From Fibrobacterota bacterium (GTDB taxonomy: Bacteria; Fibrobacterota; Fibrobacteria; UBA11236): a stretch of DNA of 37,523 bases. The stretch is from positions 1 to 37,523 of the forward strand of contig JAHFCH010000041.1 of NCBI GenBank assembly GCA_023249635.1, read 5' to 3'. The position numbers and the translations under genes are program-made. Under the pieces are notes generated by a model. The model did not search any database. It had not been told where the DNA came from and saw only the letters and a program-made list of their open reading frames with translations. Every line of letters begins with the position of its first letter. Positions within the stretch are counted from its first letter, which is position 1. Below, piece by piece: positions 11,088 to 18,669 of this stretch.

Positions 11088-11144
11088 GAGCTGTCCGGGG
11101 CGGGGAAGGGCCGGCAGATCCATTGAGCGAATCTGCGCGACAGC

Positions 11145-11245
11145 GTCGGGCGTCGGGCGTACGGGGCGAAGCGCCCCTAGGCGTCGGGCGTTAAGAATAA
11201 TGCGCGCATTTTCTTAACGCCCGACGCCCGACGCCCGACGCCTAG
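11145..11245. repeat. Inverted heptamer element A (GTCGGGC x3 / GCCCGAC x3)
   Basis: The left arm holds GTCGGGC at 11145-11151 and 11152-11158, then after a small GGGGCG/CGCCCC hairpin a third copy at 11183-11189. The right arm has three contiguous reverse-complement copies at 11219-11239. Positions 11180-11197 and 11211-11228 are perfectly complementary over 18 bp, and the core between them contains the 12-bp palindrome AATGCGCGCATT. The arms can also pair in a shifted register (11177-11190 with 11232-11245). The element lies between mutL and the next plus-strand gene. Its function is unknown; transcription termination or DNA-structure roles are possible. Confidence 0.85.
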
Positions 11246-11363
11246 CGCTATGCCTACTCCTCCGCCGCTGCTCCAAGTTTCACTTCAAGTTCTCCCATAG
11301 CTCTTGCCGAAAATCGGTCCTACGCACCTTCACTTCCGCCGTTCAAAGGCCGATAATAAGGGC

Positions 11364-12041
11364 ATGCAAACCTTACTCAAAACCTTGCTTGCGCTGTCCC
11401 TCGGACTCGGATTCCTGGCCCTGGATGCCCGCGCCCAGGATCCCGCCGCGGCTGCGGCGGCCGCGCCCGCCAAGAAACCTACCGTGGCTTTCCTCGGCCT
11501 TACCGAGGGTTCCGATCCGCAGGTATGCGACGCCATCACCAAGCGCATCCGCCGGGAGTTGGGGGCCGATAGCGCATTGACCTCCGTCTCCAGCGAGCAG
11601 GTGGAAATGTTGTACGCCAAAGGCGTGCTGCGCGCCCCCGATGCGCGTCCCGAAGATCCGGGCGCGGTCTCCAAGGCCCTGAAGGCCGAATACTTTGCCT
11701 ACGGAACGTTGGAGCGCATCGCGGTTACTTCCAAGCGCACCTGGTGGAAGCCCTGGTCGACCAAGGTCGCGTGGAAGCAGGGCATGCGTCTGCATGTCAT
11801 CGATGGGACCAAGGGCGTCGTTGCCTTCGACGGCTTGGTCGACGCCATCATGCCGGAAACCAATTGGCTCGATCCCGAAGAGGATTGGGGGATGATTCCC
11901 CCGCTGGAACGCGAAGGGCGCTTGCGCGCCATGGCCGAAGCCATCTCGGTGGAATCGGCGAAGTCGCTGGCCAAAACGGTCAAGGACAAGGCCGCGGCCG
12001 CGGGGACCCCGCCTTCCGCGGCACCCGCCTCCCCGGGCTGA
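11364..12041 (+). CDS. Secreted protein of unknown function, CsgG/TolB-N-like
   Basis: The 225-residue product has a clear Sec signal peptide (MQTLLKTLLALSLGLGFLA, cleavage probably after DARA), then a low-complexity Ala/Pro stretch. The segment KPTVAFLGLTEGSDPQVCDAITKRIRRELG and the following VSSEQVEMLYAKG look like the strand-helix start of CsgG, LpoB and TolB N-terminal domains, which begin with a VAVLxF strand and a helix ending in an RxELxxxxxxxVS pattern. That is a resemblance, not a proven homology. A YFAYGTLERI strand and several Trp residues (TWWKPWSTKVAWK) follow. The tail is Ala/Pro-rich. It is likely periplasmic or envelope-attached. The start at ATG 11364 fits the signal peptide; the frame extension to 11304 does not. 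A bidirectional terminator follows. Confidence 0.72.
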   Translation: MQTLLKTLLALSLGLGFLALDARAQDPAAAAAAAPAKKPTVAFLGLTEGSDPQVCDAITKRIRRELGADSALTSVSSEQVEMLYAKGVLRAPDARPEDPGAVSKALKAEYFAYGTLERIAVTSKRTWWKPWSTKVAWKQGMRLHVIDGTKGVVAFDGLVDAIMPETNWLDPEEDWGMIPPLEREGRLRAMAEAISVESAKSLAKTVKDKAAAAGTPPSAAPASPG

Positions 12042-12076
12042 ACTACATCCGCCAAAGGGCGACTGGAAAATCCCAT

Positions 12077-12111
12077 AAAAAGAAAACCCGGACCTTACGG
12101 CCCGGGTTTTT
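12077..12111. terminator. Bidirectional intrinsic terminator
   Basis: AAAACCCGG (12083-12091) pairs with CCGGGTTTT (12102-12110) around a 10-nt loop. An A-rich run lies on the left and a T run on the right, so it can work on either strand. It sits between the converging secreted-protein gene and the zinc-ribbon gene. Confidence 0.85.
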
Positions 12112-12142
12112 CATTTCCGGATGGAATCGCCGGGATTCCGCT

Positions 12143-12859
12143 CTAGTCTTCTTTCCAGACCAGAATGCTGCCGCAGCTTTCGCAGGTGAGCAGGGAGTTC
12201 TTCTTCGAAATTTCGATCACGCGTTGGGGCGTCTGGGTGCGGTTGCAGACCAGGCAGGCCTTTTGATTGCGGTTGATGGCCGCGATCACGTTGGGATTGC
12301 CACGGCGCTTGACCACGCGGTCGTACACGGCCAGGACCTTCTTGTTGATCTTGTCGCGGGGCGCGTCGGCCTTGGAGGTTTCCGCCGCCATCTTGTCCTC
12401 GATGCCGTTCAGCTCCTCGATGAGCTTGTTCAGTTCGGGCCCGTTGGCGTCCATCACGGTCTTGTAGGCGGTGTCCGAGGCTTCCTTTTCCTTCAGCAGG
12501 TTCTCGAGAATCTGCTGGAAATGGATCACGTTGGCCTGGGAATTGTCGATGTTGCGCTTGTGGGTCGCGATTTCCAAGTGCACCGCATCGTACTCGCGGT
12601 TGGTGCTGATGGCTTCCAGGCGCTTGTTGCTCTCGGTGAGATTGGCCTGCTCCTGAACGGAGAGGTCCTGGTTCTCGGTGATCTTGATCTTGGTTTCGGC
12701 GATGGCAGCATCGGTTTTTTCGGCGTTGCCCTTTTCCCGTTCAATGTCATCCTTCAAGGTCTGGATCCGGACGGGCAGATCCTTCTTCGTGAGCTTAAGT
12801 TCGTAGACTTTCTTGTCCACCGCCGAGAGCTCTAAAAGGTACTGTAAATCCTCTTGCAT
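12143..12859 (-). CDS. C4-type zinc-ribbon coiled-coil protein (COG1579-like)
   Basis: The 238-residue protein is a long charged coiled coil (about residues 5-180) followed by a C-terminal zinc ribbon with two CxxC pairs, CLVC and CESC. This is the layout of the COG1579 family (CdsZ/HP0958/CT398-type), which has been linked to nucleic-acid binding, sigma-54 contacts and secretion in different bacteria; its role here is not settled. The phrase ISTNREYDAVHLEI matches the family's conserved TNREYxALxxEI block. The preferred start is ATG 12859 (MQEDLQYLLELSAVDKK), where homology begins; the frame extension to 12934 passes through a hairpin repeat. It is convergent with the secreted CsgG-like gene, with a shared terminator. 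Confidence 0.85.
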   Translation of the reverse strand: MQEDLQYLLELSAVDKKVYELKLTKKDLPVRIQTLKDDIEREKGNAEKTDAAIAETKIKITENQDLSVQEQANLTESNKRLEAISTNREYDAVHLEIATHKRNIDNSQANVIHFQQILENLLKEKEASDTAYKTVMDANGPELNKLIEELNGIEDKMAAETSKADAPRDKINKKVLAVYDRVVKRRGNPNVIAAINRNQKACLVCNRTQTPQRVIEISKKNSLLTCESCGSILVWKED

Positions 12860-12886
12860 CCTGAATACCTGACTTTTAGTGTAGTG

Positions 12887-12938
12887 AGGCTCGCAGCTCC
12901 GGAGTTTGCTTCGCAAATTCCACGCTGCTCGCAATCAA
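12887..12938. repeat. REP-like imperfect repeat, copy 1
   Basis: Positions 12906-12938 match 14447-14479 in 27 of 33 bases without gaps. The segment folds into a hairpin: GGAGTTTGC (12901-12909) opposite GCAAATTCC (12913-12921), with loop TTC. It lies about 50 nt upstream of the zinc-ribbon gene start. On the minus strand both copies read LIAS(S/R)VEFA(K/Q)Q in the same frame, so most differences fall at third codon positions, though no real gene is seen. Confidence 0.55.
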
Positions 12939-12958
12939 TATTCCATTAAGCAAACTAG

Positions 12959-12991
12959 AAAAAAACCCGCATACGTCTTTTTCCGTGCGGG
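12959..12991 (-). terminator. Intrinsic terminator downstream of rplY-pth
   Basis: On the minus strand CCCGCACG-type stem (CCCGCA at 12966-12971 opposite TGCGGG at 12986-12991) is followed by seven T residues (complement of 12959-12965). It lies 130 nt after the pth stop codon. The intervening 12992-13120 contains no recognised gene. Confidence 0.8.
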
Positions 12992-13120
12992 CGCCCATCC
13001 GAGGCCGGTATCCGCGCGGTTTGGGTCCCACCTCAAAGGCGGGCGCGCACGGCACCGTATTCCGAAAAAGATAAAATAACGGGGTTTGGCCTGCAATGGC
13101 CGGCGGCCACGCCGCTGATA

Positions 13121-13690
13121 TTAAGGCGTGCCGCGACGGTTGAATTCAGATCCCGCGCGCTCCCAACCTTGGGTCAAGCCGGTCTCTACTATGCTTTTGG
13201 CCTGGGTCAGTACCGAATCCAGTACTTTCGCCTCCTCCTGGCCGTACTTGCGCAGTACGAAATCGGCGCGGTCCTGCTCAGGCGGGAAGGGCCCCACGCC
13301 AATGCGTATCCGCGTGAACTCGTCGCCGCAATGCTCCATGAGATCGCGCAGACCGTTGTGGCCCCCATGGCTGCCCTTGGTCCGGATGCGGACGGCTCCG
13401 ATGTCCAGGTAGATATCGTCTACGGCAACGATCAGGTTACGGGGGGAGACCTTATAGAAGGCCAGCAGGCCCTGGGCGGCCTCACCGGAAAGATTCATGA
13501 AGGTTATGGGCTTTGCGATGAGCAGAGGTTTGCCGGCAAGGGTGACACGGCAGGCGAGGCTCTTGGACTCGGTCTTCCATGAGCCCGCGCCCAAAGCCTC
13601 CGCCACGCGATCGGCGAAATCGAAGCCGATATTGTGGCGGGTGCGATCGTACTTGGGGCCCGGATTCCCGAGCCCCAGGAGGATGTGCAC
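13121..13690 (-). CDS. pth: Peptidyl-tRNA hydrolase
   Basis: Pth releases tRNA from stalled peptidyl-tRNA by cleaving the ester bond, in the cytoplasm. The 189-residue sequence has the complete bacterial family pattern: GLGNPGPKYDRTRHNIGF with N9 and the catalytic H19, PITFMNLSG with N66, the VAVDDIYLDIG block with the conserved Asp pair D91-D92, and GSHGGHNGL with N112. Length is normal. It begins 3 nt after the rplY stop, so the two are co-transcribed and probably translationally coupled, a pairing common in bacteria. A hairpin overlaps its stop codon (CACGCC/GGCGTG, 13109-13130) and an intrinsic terminator lies 130 nt downstream. Confidence 0.97.
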   Translation of the reverse strand: MHILLGLGNPGPKYDRTRHNIGFDFADRVAEALGAGSWKTESKSLACRVTLAGKPLLIAKPITFMNLSGEAAQGLLAFYKVSPRNLIVAVDDIYLDIGAVRIRTKGSHGGHNGLRDLMEHCGDEFTRIRIGVGPFPPEQDRADFVLRKYGQEEAKVLDSVLTQAKSIVETGLTQGWERAGSEFNRRGTP

Positions 13691-13693
13691 GGC

Positions 13694-14368
13694 TTACTTC
13701 TTGTCCTTCTTGTCGTCCTTCTTCTCTTCCTTTTTGTCGCCGGGCTTGCCTGCGGCGGCGGCAGGCGCAGCGGCGGCCGCGGGAGCGGCTGCGGCGACCG
13801 GGGTTTCTTCTTCCGCCTTACCGGTGGTCACGCCGTACAGGGCGGTCTTGCCGGGGGTGACGAAGGTACCCTTCTCGAACTTCAGGTCCTTGACGTAGAT
13901 GATGGTGCCCGAGCGGATTTCCGAGACGTCCATTTCGAACTTCTCGGGGATGTCCTGCACCTTGGCGCGCAGCTTGACGAACTTCTTCATCACGGAGAAC
14001 ACGCCGCCCTCGGTCTTTACGCCGTAAGGCATGCCGAACGTGAGCACGGGAACGTTGACGACTACCGAATGCTCGTTGTCCACGCGCAGGAAGTCGATGT
14101 GGACGAGGTCCTTGCGGATGGGGTCGCGCTCGACGGCCTTGATCAGCACCTGCTGGGAGCTGCCGTCGGCGATGGACAAGTCGATGACGTGGTTGCGCTG
14201 CGCGAGATGCGGACGCATGTCGACGGCGGTGACTTCCACCAACTCGGGCTCCTTGTCGAGGCCGTAGATGATGGCGGGGCAACGGCCCTCTTTGCGCATC
14301 ACGTTGAGGAAGGACTTGGTGGACTTGACGCGCTTCTTGGCGCTGAGGGCGATCTTAGGGGCTGCCAT
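13694..14368 (-). CDS. rplY: 50S ribosomal protein L25/general stress protein Ctc
   Basis: The 224-residue protein has the L25 5S rRNA-binding domain at the N-terminus (SLNVMRKEGRCPAIIYGL-type pattern, seen here as SFLNVMRKEGRCPAIIYG), the VIDLSIADGSSQQVLIKAVERDPIRKDLVHIDF block, and a C-terminal beta domain with FVKLRAKVQDIPEKFEMDVSEIRSG. This makes it the long Ctc-type rather than the short E. coli type. After about residue 185 it turns into an Ala/Pro-rich linker and a Lys/Asp/Glu tail, an extension seen in other Ctc proteins but unusually low in complexity. It lies in the order tRNA-Gln, rplY, pth. The upstream 14369-14495 holds a hairpin repeat (copy 2) and no clear ribosome binding site beyond AGGAATCC. 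Confidence 0.95.
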   Translation of the reverse strand: MAAPKIALSAKKRVKSTKSFLNVMRKEGRCPAIIYGLDKEPELVEVTAVDMRPHLAQRNHVIDLSIADGSSQQVLIKAVERDPIRKDLVHIDFLRVDNEHSVVVNVPVLTFGMPYGVKTEGGVFSVMKKFVKLRAKVQDIPEKFEMDVSEIRSGTIIYVKDLKFEKGTFVTPGKTALYGVTTGKAEEETPVAAAAPAAAAAPAAAAGKPGDKKEEKKDDKKDKK

Positions 14369-14435
14369 GACGGATTCCTATTCTGATGCCGGTATCCATG
14401 CGGCCATGGCATGTCTTCCCGACGTATTATGCTCA

Positions 14436-14479
14436 CCGAGCGAGGCTTGCTGCGCAAACTCCACACGGCTCGCGATTAA
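14436..14479. repeat. REP-like imperfect repeat, copy 2
   Basis: Positions 14447-14479 are the partner of copy 1 (27 of 33 identical). The stem is weaker here (GCTTGC against GCAAAC around TGC). It sits between tRNA-Gln and rplY, about 80 nt upstream of the rplY start, in the same orientation relative to the downstream minus-strand gene as copy 1. Confidence 0.55.
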
Positions 14480-14495
14480 ATGGCCACTCCATCGG

Positions 14496-14570
14496 TGGTT
14501 GGGGCGGCAGGATTCGAACCTGCGAATAACGGAGCCAAAGACCGTTGTCTTACCACTTGACGACGCCCCA
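14496..14570 (-). tRNA. tRNA-Gln (anticodon TTG)
   Basis: The 75-nt gene includes an encoded CCA end. On the minus strand the acceptor stem is TGGGGCG with CGCCCCA, discriminator A, then CCA. The T-loop is GGTTCGAATCC, the D-arm GTCAAGTGGTAAGAC, and the anticodon loop CTTTGGC gives TTG for glutamine. The anticodon stem ACGGT/TCCGT has a T-T mismatch next to the loop. The gene lies between ispE and rplY, an arrangement also known from pseudomonads, where prs is normally present as well. A well-formed promoter lies immediately upstream. Confidence 0.95.
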
Positions 14571-14584
14571 CCGATGGGCGCGGA

Positions 14585-14613
14585 AATGTAGGAAGAATTG
14601 CGGGGGGAGACAA
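14585..14613 (-). promoter_or_regulatory. Promoter of tRNA-Gln (and probably rplY-pth)
   Basis: On the minus strand TTGTCT (14608-14613) is followed after 17 nt by TACATT (14585-14590). The start would fall about 8 nt before the tRNA 5' end at 14570. The -35 TTGTC core is the same as in the rrf2 promoter. Confidence 0.65.
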
Positions 14614-14672
14614 CGGATAAGAGGCGGAATTGGGGGAATTTAGAAGGATTTGGAGGGGCACAGGCTTGGAGA

Positions 14673-14808
14673 AGCATACCGTCGGGCGTCGGGCGTCGGG
14701 CGTCGGGCGCGAAAACCGGAAATTATAGCGTGCCGTTACACCGGTTTTCTGCGGCCGCAGAGTGCGGAAAAAGTTTTACGCCCGACGCCCGACGCCAAAC
14801 GGTATGCT
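14673..14808. repeat. Inverted heptamer element B (GTCGGGC x4 / GCCCGAC x2)
   Basis: The element is bounded by perfect 8-bp inverted ends, AGCATACC (14673-14680) and GGTATGCT (14801-14808). Inside the left end are four tandem GTCGGGC units (14681-14708); before the right end are two GCCCGAC units (14780-14793) and a degenerate GCCAAAC. The 71-nt middle contains a second inverted pair, GAAAACCGG and CCGGTTTTC, and the palindrome CTGCGGCCGCAG. It lies between ispE and the tRNA-Gln promoter. No coding capacity is seen. Confidence 0.85.
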
Positions 14809-14861
14809 GGAACGGGGACTGCCTTATCAAGTTCTTTGGGTCTTACTCCAAAACGGTCTTG

Positions 14862-15725
14862 TCAGCTCGCGAACTCCGCCACGCAGGAAAACCTGCACTC
14901 CGCCTTGATCGCTGCTAGGCATTCCTCTGCCTTGCCCCTCTCCCGGAACAGGCTGAACACGCTTGCTCCGCTCCCGCTCAGCAAAGTCTTGATCGGACCG
15001 AATGCGTGCATCTTTCCGGACAACGCATCGATCTGGGGAAAGTGCTTGCGCATGGGGGCGTCGAAGTCATTGCGCATCACCTGATAGAACTCCCAGTCCT
15101 CGAAGTAGGTCACGTACAGGGCCTTGAAGCGCGCCCATTCCTGTTTCCGCTTGGGATCCAGCTGGCCGTAGGCCCAGCCGGTTTCGACGCGGCATTGGGG
15201 CGTGCCGATGACGATGTGGAACGGATAGGGATCCGGGGCGGCTTGCAGCTTTTCCCCGATGCCTTCCCCGAAATAGCAGCCGCCGAAAAGGAAGAAGGGC
15301 ACGTCGGCCCCCAACTTGGCGGCGACGGGGAGCAATTCCTGTTCGGTGAGTCCGAGTTTCCAGATACGATTGCACAATTGCAAGGCGGCCGCCGCGTTGG
15401 AACTGCCGCCGCCGAGCCCGGCGCCGGTAGGCAGGATTTTGGCGAGGGAAAAATGCATCCCCATATCCGCCCGTACCCGCTCCGGAAAGGATGCGCGCAG
15501 CAGCTTGGCGGCCTTGATGACCAGGTTGTCTTCCGGCGAAGCCGTGATGCCATCGCCGCCCGCGAGGGTGAGAGAATCGGCGGGCTCGGCACTCAGCCGG
15601 TCGCCGCAATCCACGGTCTGGAACAGCGTGCCCAGATTGTGGTAGCCGTCCGGCCTGCGATCGCGGATTTCCAGAAACAGGTTGATTTTCCCGAAGCAGG
15701 GAACGGTCTCGGCGGATGCGCTCAT
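14862..15725 (-). CDS. ispE: 4-diphosphocytidyl-2-C-methyl-D-erythritol kinase
   Basis: IspE is the GHMP-family kinase of the non-mevalonate isoprenoid pathway, phosphorylating CDP-methylerythritol. The 287-residue protein has the N-terminal FGKINLFLEIRDRRPDGYHNLGTLFQTVD with the catalytic-region lysine, the ATP loop LPTGAGLGGGSSNAAAAL (about 98-115), LGADVPFFLFGG with the conserved aspartate, and the third GHMP motif TLLSGSGASVFSLF. Length is normal. The start at 15725 (MSASAETVPCFGKINLF) is the first good ATG. It heads the minus-strand group ispE, tRNA-Gln, rplY, pth, but the heptamer element and a separate tRNA promoter lie between, so the genes probably form two transcripts. The AT-rich 15726-15852 region is shared with the divergent argF promoter. 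Confidence 0.95.
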   Translation of the reverse strand: MSASAETVPCFGKINLFLEIRDRRPDGYHNLGTLFQTVDCGDRLSAEPADSLTLAGGDGITASPEDNLVIKAAKLLRASFPERVRADMGMHFSLAKILPTGAGLGGGSSNAAAALQLCNRIWKLGLTEQELLPVAAKLGADVPFFLFGGCYFGEGIGEKLQAAPDPYPFHIVIGTPQCRVETGWAYGQLDPKRKQEWARFKALYVTYFEDWEFYQVMRNDFDAPMRKHFPQIDALSGKMHAFGPIKTLLSGSGASVFSLFRERGKAEECLAAIKAECRFSCVAEFAS

Positions 15726-15787
15726 GGCGGGGTTAAAATTAGCTTTTATTATTTATAAGATTTATGCCATATTGCCCCGGAAACCGG

Positions 15788-15817
15788 TTGTTCCCGTGGC
15801 TTCGATTAACCTATAAT
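15788..15817 (+). promoter_or_regulatory. Promoter of argF and probably the downstream KaiC-like operon
   Basis: TTGTTC (15788-15793), 18 nt, then a perfect TATAAT (15812-15817). The transcription start would be near 15824, giving a leader of about 29 nt with AGGTAAC before the argF ATG at 15853. Confidence 0.72.
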
Positions 15818-15852
15818 CACCGGATATTCCACTTCCCCTTCCACCAGGTAAC

Positions 15853-16791
15853 ATGAGCCAATCCAAGCCTCAGCACCTCAACACCTTGCTGGATTTGGAC
15901 CGGAGCCAACTCGAGTCCGTTCTCGCCTTGGCCGCGGCCATCAAAACCGAGTACAAGTCGATGGGCCCGAGCGATGCCCTCAAGGGCCGTACGGCCGCCA
16001 TGATTTTCGAGAAACCTTCGCTGCGCACCCGCGTCACCTTCGAGGCGGGCATGGTCCAGCTCGGCGGGGAAGCCATCAATCTTGATCCCGGGCAAATCTC
16101 CATCGGCAACCGCGAATCGGTCAAAGACGTCGCGCTCTGCCTTTCGCGTTGGATCGATGTCATCGTGGCGCGCACCTTCAGCCATAAGATGGTGACTGAC
16201 CTCGCCAAGTGGGCGACCATCCCGGTCATCAATGCTTTGACCGACCTGCATCATCCCTGCCAGGCCCTGGCCCTGGGCCAGACCTTGATGGAAAAGCGCG
16301 GCAAGCTTTCCGGACTGCGCCTGGCTTTCGTGGGCGACGGCAACAACGTAGCCAACTCCCTGGCCGAACTGGCCGCGCACCTGGGCATGCATTTCGTGCT
16401 CGCGTGCCCGAAAGGTTACGAGCAGAATCCGGAAGTGCTCAAGACCCTGGATCCCGTATTCAAGAAGAACGGCGGCAGCTATGCCGTTACGCATACCGCC
16501 TCCGAGGCGGTAGCCAAGGCGGATTGCATTTATACCGATGTCTGGGTGAGCATGGGCGAAGAGGCCCAGGCCGAGACCAAGAAAAAACAATTCTCGGGAT
16601 TGCAGGTGAACGCGGAACTGGTGGCCAAGGCCCCGGCCGATTGCCTGGTGACCCATTGCCTGCCCGCCCACGTCGGCGAGGAGATAACCCAGGACGTGAT
16701 GGACTCGGCCCGTTGCGTGTGCTTCGACGAGGCGGAAAACCGCCTGCATGCCCAGAAGGCCGTGTTGCTGACCGTCATCGGGAAACGTTAG
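15853..16791 (+). CDS. argF: Ornithine carbamoyltransferase
   Basis: The enzyme makes citrulline from ornithine and carbamoyl phosphate in arginine synthesis. The 312-residue protein has the carbamoyl-phosphate loop PSLRTRVTFE (55-64; the common form is STRTR, and SLRTR is a known variant), VIVARTFSH, the HPCQALA motif (134-140), the ornithine-side DVWVSMG and HCLPAH. The last two support ornithine rather than aspartate as substrate, and acetylornithine or succinylornithine variants are less likely. The ribosome binding site is AGGT about 4 nt before the ATG. Only 15 nt separate it from the KaiC-like gene, so they are probably co-transcribed; no other arg gene is present. Confidence 0.95.
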   Translation: MSQSKPQHLNTLLDLDRSQLESVLALAAAIKTEYKSMGPSDALKGRTAAMIFEKPSLRTRVTFEAGMVQLGGEAINLDPGQISIGNRESVKDVALCLSRWIDVIVARTFSHKMVTDLAKWATIPVINALTDLHHPCQALALGQTLMEKRGKLSGLRLAFVGDGNNVANSLAELAAHLGMHFVLACPKGYEQNPEVLKTLDPVFKKNGGSYAVTHTASEAVAKADCIYTDVWVSMGEEAQAETKKKQFSGLQVNAELVAKAPADCLVTHCLPAHVGEEITQDVMDSARCVCFDEAENRLHAQKAVLLTVIGKR

Positions 16792-16806
16792 GACCTAAGG
16801 AGAATC

Positions 16807-17589
16807 ATGCTGGAACGAGCTCCATTCGGGATCGAGGCTTTGGACAAGATGATCGGCGGCGGCGTGGTCAAAGGCAGCGCCACCGTAGTGGAAGGCGCGC
16901 CGGGCACCGGCAAGACCACCCTCGGCATGCAGTTCATCGTCAACGGCATCGAAAAGTTCCAGGAGCCCGGCCTCATCCTCACCTTCGAGGAGTTCCCCAG
17001 CCAGTATTACCACGACGCGCTCAACTTCGGTTGGGATCTCAAGAAGTTCGAAGAGCAGGGCATGCTCAAGATCATCTTCTCCGATCCGTCCACCGTGGCC
17101 AGCGAAGTGGAAGAGCTGGGCGGCGGCCTGGAAACCCTCATCGACGAGATGGGTATCAAGCGCTGCCTGGTCGATTCCCTGACCCACTTCGAATACGCGG
17201 CCGAGGAGTCCGATTCCCTCCGCGAGATGGAATATGATTTCATCACCAGCCTTAAGCGCGAGGGCATCACCTCGCTGCTGCTGCGCGAGAACAGCAACCT
17301 GCTGGGCGACACCAGCAGCCTGTCGCAGGCGCCCTTCATCGCGGACAACTACTTCATCCTCCGCTACGTCGAAATCGACAGCGCCATCTCCAAGGCCATC
17401 CTCGTGCTCAAGATGCGCGGCAGCCAGCATGCCAAGGACATCCGCCAGTTCCTGATCGCCAAGAACGGCATCGAGATCATGGAGAAGTTCGTGGGACGCC
17501 AGGGAGTGATGAGCGGTTCGCCGGTGAAGACCGATGCGGATACCTTCGTGGAAGCCTTCTCGGCCTTCGGCAAGAAGAAGGGCAAATAG
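16807..17589 (+). CDS. Single-domain KaiC-like RecA-fold ATPase
   Basis: The 260-residue protein has one KaiC domain: FGIEALDKMIGGGVVKGS (7-24), Walker A EGAPGTGKTT (29-38), catalytic glutamates in ILTFEEFP (E61, E62), Walker B CLVDSLT (120-126), and the family-specific KMRGSQH at 202-208. It is half the length of circadian KaiC. Related single-domain proteins are found with two-component parts in bacteria and archaea. It has a strong AAGGAG 6 nt before the ATG. Downstream, closely spaced, are two small membrane proteins and a lone receiver, so it is probably the ATP-dependent core of a membrane-linked signalling switch. Whether it autophosphorylates is unknown. No kaiA or kaiB is seen, so a clock function should not be assumed. 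Confidence 0.9.
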   Translation: MLERAPFGIEALDKMIGGGVVKGSATVVEGAPGTGKTTLGMQFIVNGIEKFQEPGLILTFEEFPSQYYHDALNFGWDLKKFEEQGMLKIIFSDPSTVASEVEELGGGLETLIDEMGIKRCLVDSLTHFEYAAEESDSLREMEYDFITSLKREGITSLLLRENSNLLGDTSSLSQAPFIADNYFILRYVEIDSAISKAILVLKMRGSQHAKDIRQFLIAKNGIEIMEKFVGRQGVMSGSPVKTDADTFVEAFSAFGKKKGK

Positions 17590-17591
17590 GC

Positions 17592-17891
17592 TTGGCTACG
17601 CTTAACGCGGTGGGCATGGTACTCTCCTCGCTCCTCTTCGCGGTGGTGGGGTTCTACCTCACCCTCATCGCCAAATTCTACCGGATGAAATTCTCCAAGG
17701 GGCCGCCCTACCGCTACCTGCAAATCGCCCTGGCCGTTCTGGTCACCGGTCTCGTAACCGAATTGCTGCGCACCTTACATCTGGTCCACGGCATACCCCA
17801 CTACCTTGCGCCCGCCATCATCTGCGCCGGCGGGTTGGCCTTTTCCGCATTGTGTTACGCGCTGTACCGAACCATGATGAGCGTGGACTGA
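17592..17891 (+). CDS. Small three-helix membrane protein of the KaiC-like operon (1)
   Basis: I do not recognise a family. The product has up to 99 residues, with three predicted membrane helices (about 9-32, 43-66, 70-92) and a basic juxtamembrane loop KFYRMKFSKGPPYRYLQ after helix 1. A TTG at 17592 lies 3 nt after the KaiC-like stop; an ATG at 17616 (MVLSSLLFAVV) would give 91 residues and is an equally good start. Spacing shows it belongs to the same operon. It resembles the next gene product in length, helix number and a K-x-P-x-Y-(R/K) loop, so the two may be tandem duplicates. It is likely to anchor or sense for the KaiC-like ATPase or the receiver. Confidence 0.75.
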   Translation: MATLNAVGMVLSSLLFAVVGFYLTLIAKFYRMKFSKGPPYRYLQIALAVLVTGLVTELLRTLHLVHGIPHYLAPAIICAGGLAFSALCYALYRTMMSVD

Positions 17892-17898
17892 GGGCGGC

Positions 17899-18198
17899 AT
17901 GGTTTCGATTTCCGCCATCACCATCGTCATCCTGCACCTGACCTTCATCGTCACGTTCCTGGTGGTCGCGTCCCTCAGCCGCATCTTCGGCGCGGCGCGC
18001 AAGAAGCGGCCCCTGTACAAACTGTACTACGTCGCCAGCTTCATGATGATGCTTTCCATGGTCTTGAGCATGGTGGGTTTGGATCTAGAATACATGGCCG
18101 TCGCGGCCACCGGCCTGGATTTGGCGGGCCTTATCATCGGATGCGCGGTAACTTACTTTTATTGGGACTGGCTCCCGCGCGAACTGGCTAAGGGATAG
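17899..18198 (+). CDS. Small three-helix membrane protein of the KaiC-like operon (2)
   Basis: I do not recognise a family. It has 99 residues: helix 1 about 5-29, a basic loop GAARKKRPLYKLYYV, helix 2 about 44-62 and helix 3 about 68-88 ending in YFYWDWLPRELAKG. Start ATG 17899 lies 7 nt after the previous stop, with GAGGGCGGC upstream. The same organisation as its neighbour, three helices and a K-x-P-x-Y-(R/K) loop after helix 1, suggests that the two arose by duplication or form a heteromer. It is followed after 19 nt by the response regulator. No catalytic residues are evident. Confidence 0.8.
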   Translation: MVSISAITIVILHLTFIVTFLVVASLSRIFGAARKKRPLYKLYYVASFMMMLSMVLSMVGLDLEYMAVAATGLDLAGLIIGCAVTYFYWDWLPRELAKG

Positions 18199-18217
18199 GC
18201 TCGGAAAGGGGCGTCGC

Positions 18218-18598
18218 ATGGCGAAGATACTCTGCGTAGACGACGAGCGCGATATCGCTGACCTGGTCAAGCTGGTGCTCGAACTGGGAAAGCACGATGT
18301 CACCGTCGTCACCGAGCCCGAATCCGCCGTGGCCACGGCCCTGGAGATATTGCCGGACCTGATCCTGCTCGATGTGGTGATGCCCAACGTGGACGGCTTC
18401 GATATCTTCCGGGAGCTGCGTGAGCAGGCGCCCCTGGCCAAGGTCCCCATCGCCTTCTTGACCAGCAATAACAAATCGGTGGATTTGATGGTGGGCCTGC
18501 ACGTGATGAAGGCCGAGGACTATATCACCAAGCCGTTCGGGAAGCAGGAGCTTCTGGACCGGGTCAATACGTTGTTGAAGAAGTACGGGAAGGCCTGA
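18218..18598 (+). CDS. Single-domain CheY-like response regulator
   Basis: The 126-residue protein is one receiver domain and nothing else. It has the acidic pair D8-D9 (CVDDE), phospho-acceptor D52 in LILLDVVMP, a hydroxyl residue at the T82/S83 switch position and K105 in ITKPF, so it should be phosphorylatable. There is no DNA-binding output, so it must act by protein contact. It is the fifth gene after argF, in the KaiC-like operon, and has no adjacent histidine kinase, so it may receive phosphate from an orphan kinase such as the hybrid kinase at 3828-5954. That link is a guess. The inverted heptamer element follows the stop codon. Confidence 0.93.
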   Translation: MAKILCVDDERDIADLVKLVLELGKHDVTVVTEPESAVATALEILPDLILLDVVMPNVDGFDIFRELREQAPLAKVPIAFLTSNNKSVDLMVGLHVMKAEDYITKPFGKQELLDRVNTLLKKYGKA

Positions 18599-18609
18599 AT
18601 TTGAAATCC

Positions 18610-18669
18610 AGGTTTAAGGTCTAAGGTTTAAGCTAGGGGCATTTTCCTTAGACCTTAAACCTTAGACCT
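18610..18669. repeat. Inverted heptamer element C (AGGTYTA x3 / TARACCT x3)
   Basis: The left arm has AGGTTTA, AGGTCTA, AGGTTTA (18610-18630); the right arm has TAGACCT, TAAACCT, TAGACCT (18649-18669). An 18-nt spacer separates them. The arms pair perfectly over at least 16 bp in more than one register because of the repeated units. The organisation (six facing heptamers) is the same as elements A and B, but the sequence is AT-rich and different. It lies between the converging receiver gene and the gene at 18677-19339 and could act as a terminator for both. Confidence 0.85.

What the first reader, a model, noticed from the sequence alone, without database searches (positions are those of the whole stretch)
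11145..18669. Three intergenic elements with six facing heptamers and the same architecture
Elements A (11145-11245), B (14673-14808) and C (18610-18669) each carry exactly six 7-bp units arranged as two facing arms: 3+3, 4+2 and 3+3. A and B use GTCGGGC/GCCCGAC; C uses AGGTYTA/TARACCT. Keeping the unit length, unit number and inverted layout while changing the sequence suggests that a mechanism recognises or generates the geometry (for example a replication, recombination or expansion process) rather than one binding protein. All three are intergenic. Seven-bp tandem repeats are known from cyanobacteria (STRR), but inverted pairs with a fixed total would be different.
Basis: partly seen in the sequence, partly recalled or inferred. 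Interest (0 to 1): 0.7.

Follow-up and report, generated by a model that had tools for sequence, protein, structure and literature searches.

The report
Heptamer hairpins paired with IVP genes
The three facing 7-bp repeat elements are members of two genome-wide families of hairpins at gene ends, and each family shares its repeat unit with a small gene of a poorly understood protein family (23S rRNA intervening sequence protein, IVP/S23), a pairing that recurs in distant bacteria and suggests where many unexplained 7-bp repeats come from.

Summary
A, B and C belong to two dispersed families in a 6.75-Mb Fibrobacterota genome: F1 (GTCGGGC) and F2 (AGGTYTA). Among 75 elements in 1.05 Mb, all face inward, total units run from 3 to 7, and only 2 of 72 lie between divergent genes. 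Period 7 is the only period that clearly forms such facing tandem pairs.

The cause lies outside the window. All five PF05635 genes (23S rRNA intervening sequence protein, IVP/S23) found in this genus lie between facing tandem heptamer arms. F1 and F2 are the arms of two of this genome's own IVP genes. Heptamers read only from IVP arms in three other genomes predicted species-specific dispersed repeats: 191, 27 and 79 hits, against 0 to 9 in comparison genomes. IVP genes of other Fibrobacterota, cyanobacterial plasmids and a 23S rRNA insert show the same kind of arms.

Best reading: gene-less hairpin satellites of IVP elements, organised like REPIN and RAYT but with IVP in place of a transposase. 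IVP-dependent movement is inferred, not shown. No paper in the searched library links IVP to dispersed heptamers.

The parts
11143..11241 (.). Element A (F1 family): facing heptamer arms, 3+3 units
   Evidence: RNA fold -86.1 kcal/mol, z -9.5
11145..11158 (+). A left arm, units 1-2 GTCGGGC GTCGGGC
11159..11182 (.). A side hairpin GTACGGGGCGAAGCGCCCCTAGGC, a module recurring in other F1 elements of this genome
11183..11189 (+). A left arm, unit 3
11190..11218 (.). A inner hairpin GTTAAGAATAATGCGCGCATTTTCTTAAC; the TTAAGAAAATGCG type recurs among this species' elements
11219..11239 (-). A right arm, 3 units GCCCGAC
14673..14808 (.). Element B (F1 family), 4+2 exact units plus degenerate GCCAAAC (14794-14800) and outer arms AGCATACC / GGTATGCT
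   Evidence: fold -89.0 kcal/mol, z -9.7
14681..14708 (+). B left arm, 4 units GTCGGGC
14760..14779 (.). B inner module GAGTGCGGAAAAAGTTTTAC, which is repeated in several G002 F1 elements
14780..14793 (-). B right arm, 2 exact units GCCCGAC
18610..18669 (.). Element C (F2 family), 3+3 units, between convergent genes; relatives G005 and G002 have an ordinary intrinsic terminator at this place
   Evidence: fold -34.7 kcal/mol, z -5.4
18610..18630 (+). C left arm AGGTTTA AGGTCTA AGGTTTA
18649..18669 (-). C right arm TAGACCT TAAACCT TAGACCT

Best explanation
A, B and C are gene-less members of IVP elements. A full IVP element consists of two facing arrays of a 7-bp unit around a roughly 120-aa gene of family PF05635 (23S rRNA intervening sequence protein, S23, four-helix bundle). 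Each IVP lineage has its own 7-bp unit. Short satellites with the same arms and a small variable hairpin in place of the gene multiply in the same genome and settle or persist just downstream of genes, where they fold into strong hairpins in either reading direction and can stand where an ordinary terminator stands in relatives. SHOWN: the arms around IVP genes, unit identity between IVP arms and dispersed copies in five genomes, species-specific expansions, empty sites in relatives, position at gene 3' ends, conserved sites with swapped unit and loop. INFERRED: that IVP recognises the heptamer arms (as hairpin RNA or single-stranded DNA) and is needed for spread or upkeep; that the copying itself uses a host or unlinked enzyme, since this small family has no known nuclease, transposase or polymerase domain; that the hairpins help end or protect transcripts.
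For: Two families genome-wide: F1 149 two-unit hits in G000, 287 in G002, 10 in G003, none in G001, G004, G005; F2 316 hits in G000 only. Profile PF05635 finds five IVP genes in the genus: L230 (G000, GTCGGGC 3/3), L231 (G002, GTCGGGC 4/4), L233 (G000, AGGTTTA = F2), L232 (G004, AGGGTAMA), L234 (G000, AAAAGTG), all with facing heptamer arms. Prediction tests with units read only from IVP arms: G004 191 hits, against 0, 0, 1, 0, 0 in congeners; G009 27, against 0 in 11 other genomes; G045 79, against 0-3 in genomes of other genera and 2-9 in its own genus. In 95 flanks of 48 IVP loci, 39 have strong period-7 arrays against 1 of 93 control windows; every other period but 8 (9 flanks) and the harmonic 14 (23) is at most 3. 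Left and right flanks match as facing arms in 42 of 48 loci. Cyanobacterial plasmid IVP loci and an Azospirillum 23S rRNA insert also carry them. IVP elements have empty sites in relatives: 25 bp in G002 and 43 bp in G005 at the L233 site. Position: divergent gaps avoided, 2 of 72 in G000 (p 1e-7) and 0 of 30 in G002 (p 1e-5). Shared sites between G000 and G002: 11 both, 1 and 4 in one only, 75 neither (p 3e-10).
Against: No movement, target-site duplication or IVP binding was observed. G003 has F1 elements but no detected IVP gene, and G000's third IVP (AAAAGTG) has no dispersed copies in the 1.05 Mb read. About a third of IVP loci (18 of 48) do not pass the strict period-7 test, though many show degenerate heptamers by eye; Gemmatirosa looks like period 8. 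Shared sites across species, with unit swapped, fit targeted or site-bound turnover better than free random transposition.
Confidence: 0.75

Rival explanations
1. The elements are ordinary bidirectional intrinsic terminators whose stems grew by replication slippage of 7-bp units; the IVP genes merely sit among them.
For: 3'-end location, strong hairpins, terminators of the plain kind at orthologous sites in G005/G002, inner A-hairpin-T structures in some elements (L038, L048).
Against: IVP flanks are specifically period-7 while windows 450 bp away in the same loci are not (39/95 vs 1/93). Units taken from IVP arms predict the dispersed unit of that genome in three of three tests. Identical units at scores of sites plus shared inner modules require copying between sites, which slippage cannot give.
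Confidence: 0.1
2. IVP elements and hairpins are real mates, but IVP only stabilises or processes the hairpin RNA (for example with RNase III) and the turnover is by homologous recombination or gene conversion among old copies.
For: Sites are shared between G000 and G002 with different loops; loops are species-specific and shared among sites, as concerted evolution gives. The IVS of Coxiella is excised by RNase III (PMC4990558).
Against: F2 occupies many sites in one species only and sites with very short gaps in relatives, which needs gain of new sites.
Confidence: 0.2
3. Heptamers are binding sites of a chromosome-organising or DNA-uptake system (DUS/USS-like, or nucleoid sites), with IVP elements as hitch-hikers.
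For: Many copies, exact unit, conserved sites between species; uptake sequences are also found as facing pairs at terminators in Neisseria and Haemophilus (own knowledge).
Against: Units outside the elements are not in excess: F1 161 outside, where a third-order model expects 267 in all; F2 61 against 63. The unit changes completely between sister species and follows the local IVP gene.
Confidence: 0.04
4. REP/REPIN-type repeats moved by a RAYT (Y1 HUH transposase).
For: Same overall layout: short intergenic palindromic repeats plus one related low-copy gene per genome.
Against: No PF01797 gene in G000, G002, G003, G004, G005; REP tags GTAG/CGTC are not the organising motif; the gene between the arms is PF05635.
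Confidence: 0.02

Closest known systems
23S rRNA intervening sequences (IVS) with an S23/IVP reading frame (Leptospira, Coxiella, Brucella; PF05635)
   Same: Same protein family between complementary arms; in Coxiella 3-4 tandem heptamers GACAGAT precede the S23p gene and vary in number among strains (PMC4990558); an Azospirillum 23S insert shows facing heptamers.
   Different: Here the elements are intergenic rather than in rRNA, and most copies lack the gene.
GGGAATC heptamer repeats of Xanthomonas and GGGGAYT of Nostoc (PMC4692102)
   Same: 7-bp units, about 185 sites per Xanthomonas genome, 70-75 facing pairs, on average 28 nt after the upstream gene, few between divergent genes. X. campestris encodes a close IVP relative, XCC0516 (2gsc, E 9e-26).
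   Different: That paper reads them as G-quadruplex sequences and names no associated gene; whether XCC0516 is flanked by GGGAATC could not be tested here.
STRR heptanucleotide repeats of filamentous cyanobacteria
   Same: Tandem 7-mers with several unit types per genome; IVP genes in Nostoc, Calothrix and Anabaena plasmids are flanked by such 7-mers.
   Different: STRRs are described as tandem arrays with no known gene partner (own knowledge); membership was not tested on the original STRR units.
REPIN-RAYT systems
   Same: Dispersed short palindromic satellites tied to a related gene that is low in copy number and can be vertically inherited (L230/L231 and L232/L233 are at the same loci in two species each).
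   Different: Partner is IVP, not a Y1 transposase; arms are tandem heptamers; no mobility demonstrated.

Membership tests
IVP (PF05635) element with heptamer arms | PF05635 gene between facing arrays of the same unit exists in the genome | tested here: met
   L230 for F1, L233 for F2
IVP (PF05635) element with heptamer arms | Dispersed copies carry the unit of the genome's own IVP arms | tested here: met
IVP (PF05635) element with heptamer arms | IVP protein acts on the heptamer hairpin | not testable with these tools
   needs binding and deletion experiments
23S rRNA IVS | Inserted in an rRNA gene helix | tested here: not met
   window elements lie between protein genes or beside tRNA-Gln; no Rfam match to the elements
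REPIN/RAYT | RAYT (PF01797) gene in the genome | tested here: not met
   absent in G000 and G002-G005
Heptameric intergenic repeats of the Xanthomonas type | Facing 7-mer arrays, intergenic, close to upstream stop, rare between divergent genes | tested here: met
   searches compared with PMC4692102
DNA uptake sequences | Excess of single units across the genome including coding regions | tested here: not met
   no excess outside elements
Intrinsic terminators | Hairpin followed at once by a T-run | tested here: inconclusive
   consensus scan finds none at A or C and one weak site at B on the minus strand; some other elements hold a strong inner terminator, and plain terminators occupy site C in relatives

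The most novel reading that the evidence does not exclude
IVP/S23 four-helix-bundle genes define a widespread class of genetic element, 7-bp-unit arms around a small gene without a known catalytic domain, that breeds gene-less hairpin satellites at gene ends; cyanobacterial STRRs, Xanthomonas GGGAATC repeats, rRNA IVSs and the general excess of heptameric repeats in bacteria are all products of it.
Probability: 0.55. Interest if true: 0.9.

Novelty: new variant of a known kind. Interest (0 to 1): 0.8.

Why it matters
Heptameric repeats are over-represented in many bacteria and have been put down to polymerase slippage or G-quadruplexes (PMC4692102), and the IVP/S23 family has no known function although it is common and structurally solved. 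Tying the two together gives each a testable explanation: a repeat unit predicted from the arms of one gene was found dispersed in that genome in three of three trials. If IVP drives or maintains the repeats, this is a self-spreading system built round a small protein without a known catalytic domain, and it reshapes transcript ends at scores of genes per genome.

Tried and rejected
Fixed total of six units: rejected. RAYT/REP: no PF01797. Uptake sequence: no excess of single units. Known structured RNA: no Rfam match except the tRNA. Heptamer tandems of any unit in congeners G001, G004 and G005: none in the first stretches read, later explained for G004 by its own unit, which those small contigs did not hold. 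These stretches were mostly picked because they hold elements, so their density must not be extrapolated. Gene contexts rest on a home-made gene finder.
Full report
OBSERVATION. A (11143-11241) has three GTCGGGC and three GCCCGAC units with a 24-nt side hairpin between left units 2 and 3; B (14673-14808) has four and two exact units plus degenerate heptamers further out; C (18610-18669) has AGGTTTA/AGGTCTA/AGGTTTA facing TAGACCT/TAAACCT/TAGACCT. All are intergenic: A between a MutL gene and an unknown gene (same direction), B between tRNA-Gln and a GHMP kinase gene (same direction), C between a convergent response regulator gene and an unknown gene. Each folds far better than shuffles.

GENOME-WIDE. 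The window is contig C269 of a 6.75-Mb genome. Named congeners are Fibrobacteres/Fibrobacteria MAGs: contig lengths identify G002 with JAQBPN (isolate RYN_348) and G003 with JANYDA. The two-unit F1 motif occurs 149 times in this genome and the F2 motif 316 times. A scan for facing tandem pairs of any unit found only these two units at period 7 (40 of 41 pairs) and none at periods 8-12 (exact version). In 1.05 Mb, 37 F1 and 38 F2 elements were catalogued; every one faces inward; totals of 3 to 7 units. So unit length and layout are fixed, unit number is not.

PLACE. With gene calls covering 87.6% of the stretches, 54 elements lie between same-direction genes, 16 between convergent and 2 between divergent genes, against 97 divergent among 393 gaps of 80 bp or more (p 1e-7). 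In G002 the figure is 0 of 30 against 43 of 148 (p 1e-5). Between same-direction genes they begin a median 12 (F2) or 35 bp (F1) after the upstream stop codon. At site C, G005 has GAAAAAGGCCCGCTCAAGCGGGCCTTTTTC and G002 a similar plain terminator; at another F1 site G005 also has a plain terminator, and the F1 element of G000 encloses one within its arms (L038).

COMPARISON OF SPECIES. G000 and G002 share gene order at about 75% amino-acid identity. Of 91 conserved neighbouring gene pairs, 11 carry an element in both, 1 only in G002, 4 only in G000, 75 in neither (p 3e-10). At three of the 11, G000 has F2 where G002 has F1. Loops and outer ends differ between the species but inner modules recur among sites within a species (G000: TTAAGAAAATGCG; G002: AAAACCGAAGAGC and GTGCGGAAAAAGTTTTAC). 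Sites A and B are empty, with 43-69 bp gaps, in G004 and G005 (B also in G003).

THE PARTNER GENE. One G002 F1 element has arms of 4+4 units set 427 bp apart, and between them an open frame that matches PF05635, 23S_rRNA_IVP, at E 3e-37. A profile search of the six genus members found five such genes: three in G000, one each in G002 and G004, none in G001, G003, G005. All five are enclosed by facing tandem heptamers: GTCGGGC in L230 and L231, AGGTTTA/TAGACCT in L233, AGGGTAMA in L232, AAAAGTG in L234. Thus F1 and F2 each equal the arms of an IVP gene of the same genome. L230 and L231 are at the same locus in two species, and so are L232 and L233, whose units differ, so an IVP locus can be inherited while its unit changes. 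Relatives without the gene have short gaps there (25, 43 and 151 bp at the L233 site).

PREDICTION TESTS. The unit from the G004 IVP arms was sought in all six genomes: 191 hits in G004, one in G002, none elsewhere. The unit from the L252 arms: 27 hits in G009, none in 11 other genomes. The unit from the L239 arms: 79 hits in G045, 2 to 9 in three genomes of its genus, 3 in one other, none in seven. The listed places are mostly facing pairs for G004 and G009; in G045 many listed arms stand alone at this strict pattern.

BEYOND THE GENUS. PF05635 is present in 100 of 168 Fibrobacterota genomes. Over 48 IVP loci (34 Fibrobacterota, 14 from plasmid records), 39 of 95 flanks hold a strong period-7 array against 1 of 93 windows 450 bp away; period 8 has 9, and 14, the harmonic, 23. 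Flanks match each other as facing arms more than as direct copies in 42 of 48 loci (p 8e-6). By eye, loci below the threshold mostly show short or degenerate heptamers. Nostoc, Geminocystis, Calothrix, Anabaena, Trichormus and Aulosira plasmid loci carry facing heptamers with different units, and an Azospirillum frame lying within 23S rRNA-like sequence is enclosed by RGAKGAC units (the rRNA identity is read by eye).

LITERATURE. In the library searched, the Coxiella IVS paper notes three to four tandem heptamers GACAGAT before the S23p gene, varying among strains (PMC4990558). Xanthomonas GGGAATC repeats include 70-75 facing pairs, lie on average 28 nt after the upstream gene and are rare between divergent genes (PMC4692102); X. 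campestris makes the closest solved relative of our IVP (2gsc). Neither the Xanthomonas/Nostoc paper nor the Beggiatoaceae TAACTGA paper mentions IVP or S23, and searches for the two ideas together found only the Coxiella paper. Subscription papers and preprints are not held, so novelty is not proven.

MECHANISM. Shown: shared unit, arms, species-specific multiplication, 3'-end placement, hairpin folding. Inferred: IVP recognises its unit in a hairpin (RNA or single-stranded DNA) and promotes spread or upkeep; copying is done by another enzyme. Invariant IVP positions in 48 sequences include P32, E35, Q42, S49, N53, E56 and E79 of L231, without a recognised catalytic motif (the absence of one is a judgement). 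A homopentameric ring of four-helix bundles is reported for the Xanthomonas protein (cited in PMC4990558). Single units show no excess outside elements, against an uptake-sequence role; RAYT is absent; Rfam has no matching family.

Noticed in passing
L269, L273, L272 (plasmids of Anabaena sp. 90, Pseudanabaena galeata, Picosynechococcus PCC 7003): IVP genes sit inside CRISPR-cas operons: between cas6 and cas4 in two loci and between cas10 and cmr3 in one type III-B locus, each with flanking repeats.
   Followed up: partly
L276 (Azospirillum lipoferum 4B plasmid AZO_p2, 13510-15630): An unannotated IVP-like frame within 23S rRNA-like sequence, bounded by facing RGAKGAC heptamers, which links rRNA intervening sequences to the intergenic elements.
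   Followed up: partly
L293 (G003), orthologous site of the L230 IVP gene: G003 has several F1 elements but no IVP gene; at the IVP locus a short GCCCGAC-containing scrap remains, possibly the scar of a lost IVP element.
   Followed up: partly
L207, gap orthologous to element A (G002:C90 about 81255-81780): G002 has no heptamer element at site A but a large nested inverted repeat (GCCCCGGGGGCCGCGCGGGGCGGGC ... GCCCGCCCCGCGGGGCCCCCGGGGC), a different kind of intergenic palindrome.
   Followed up: no
L270 (Gemmatirosa kalamazoonensis plasmid): IVP gene flanked by an apparent 8-bp unit (AGGGCAGG) rather than 7, so the period may not be universal.
   Followed up: no
L052:5516-5595 (JAFDVN010000051, Acidobacteria SZAS-17): A facing GTCGGGC element with GTCAGGC variants in an unrelated genome: independent use of the same unit or mis-binning; no IVP gene within the 8 kb held.
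   Followed up: partly
L234 (G000:C245): A third, diverged IVP gene (AAAAGTG arms) without dispersed copies in the 1.05 Mb read.
   Followed up: partly
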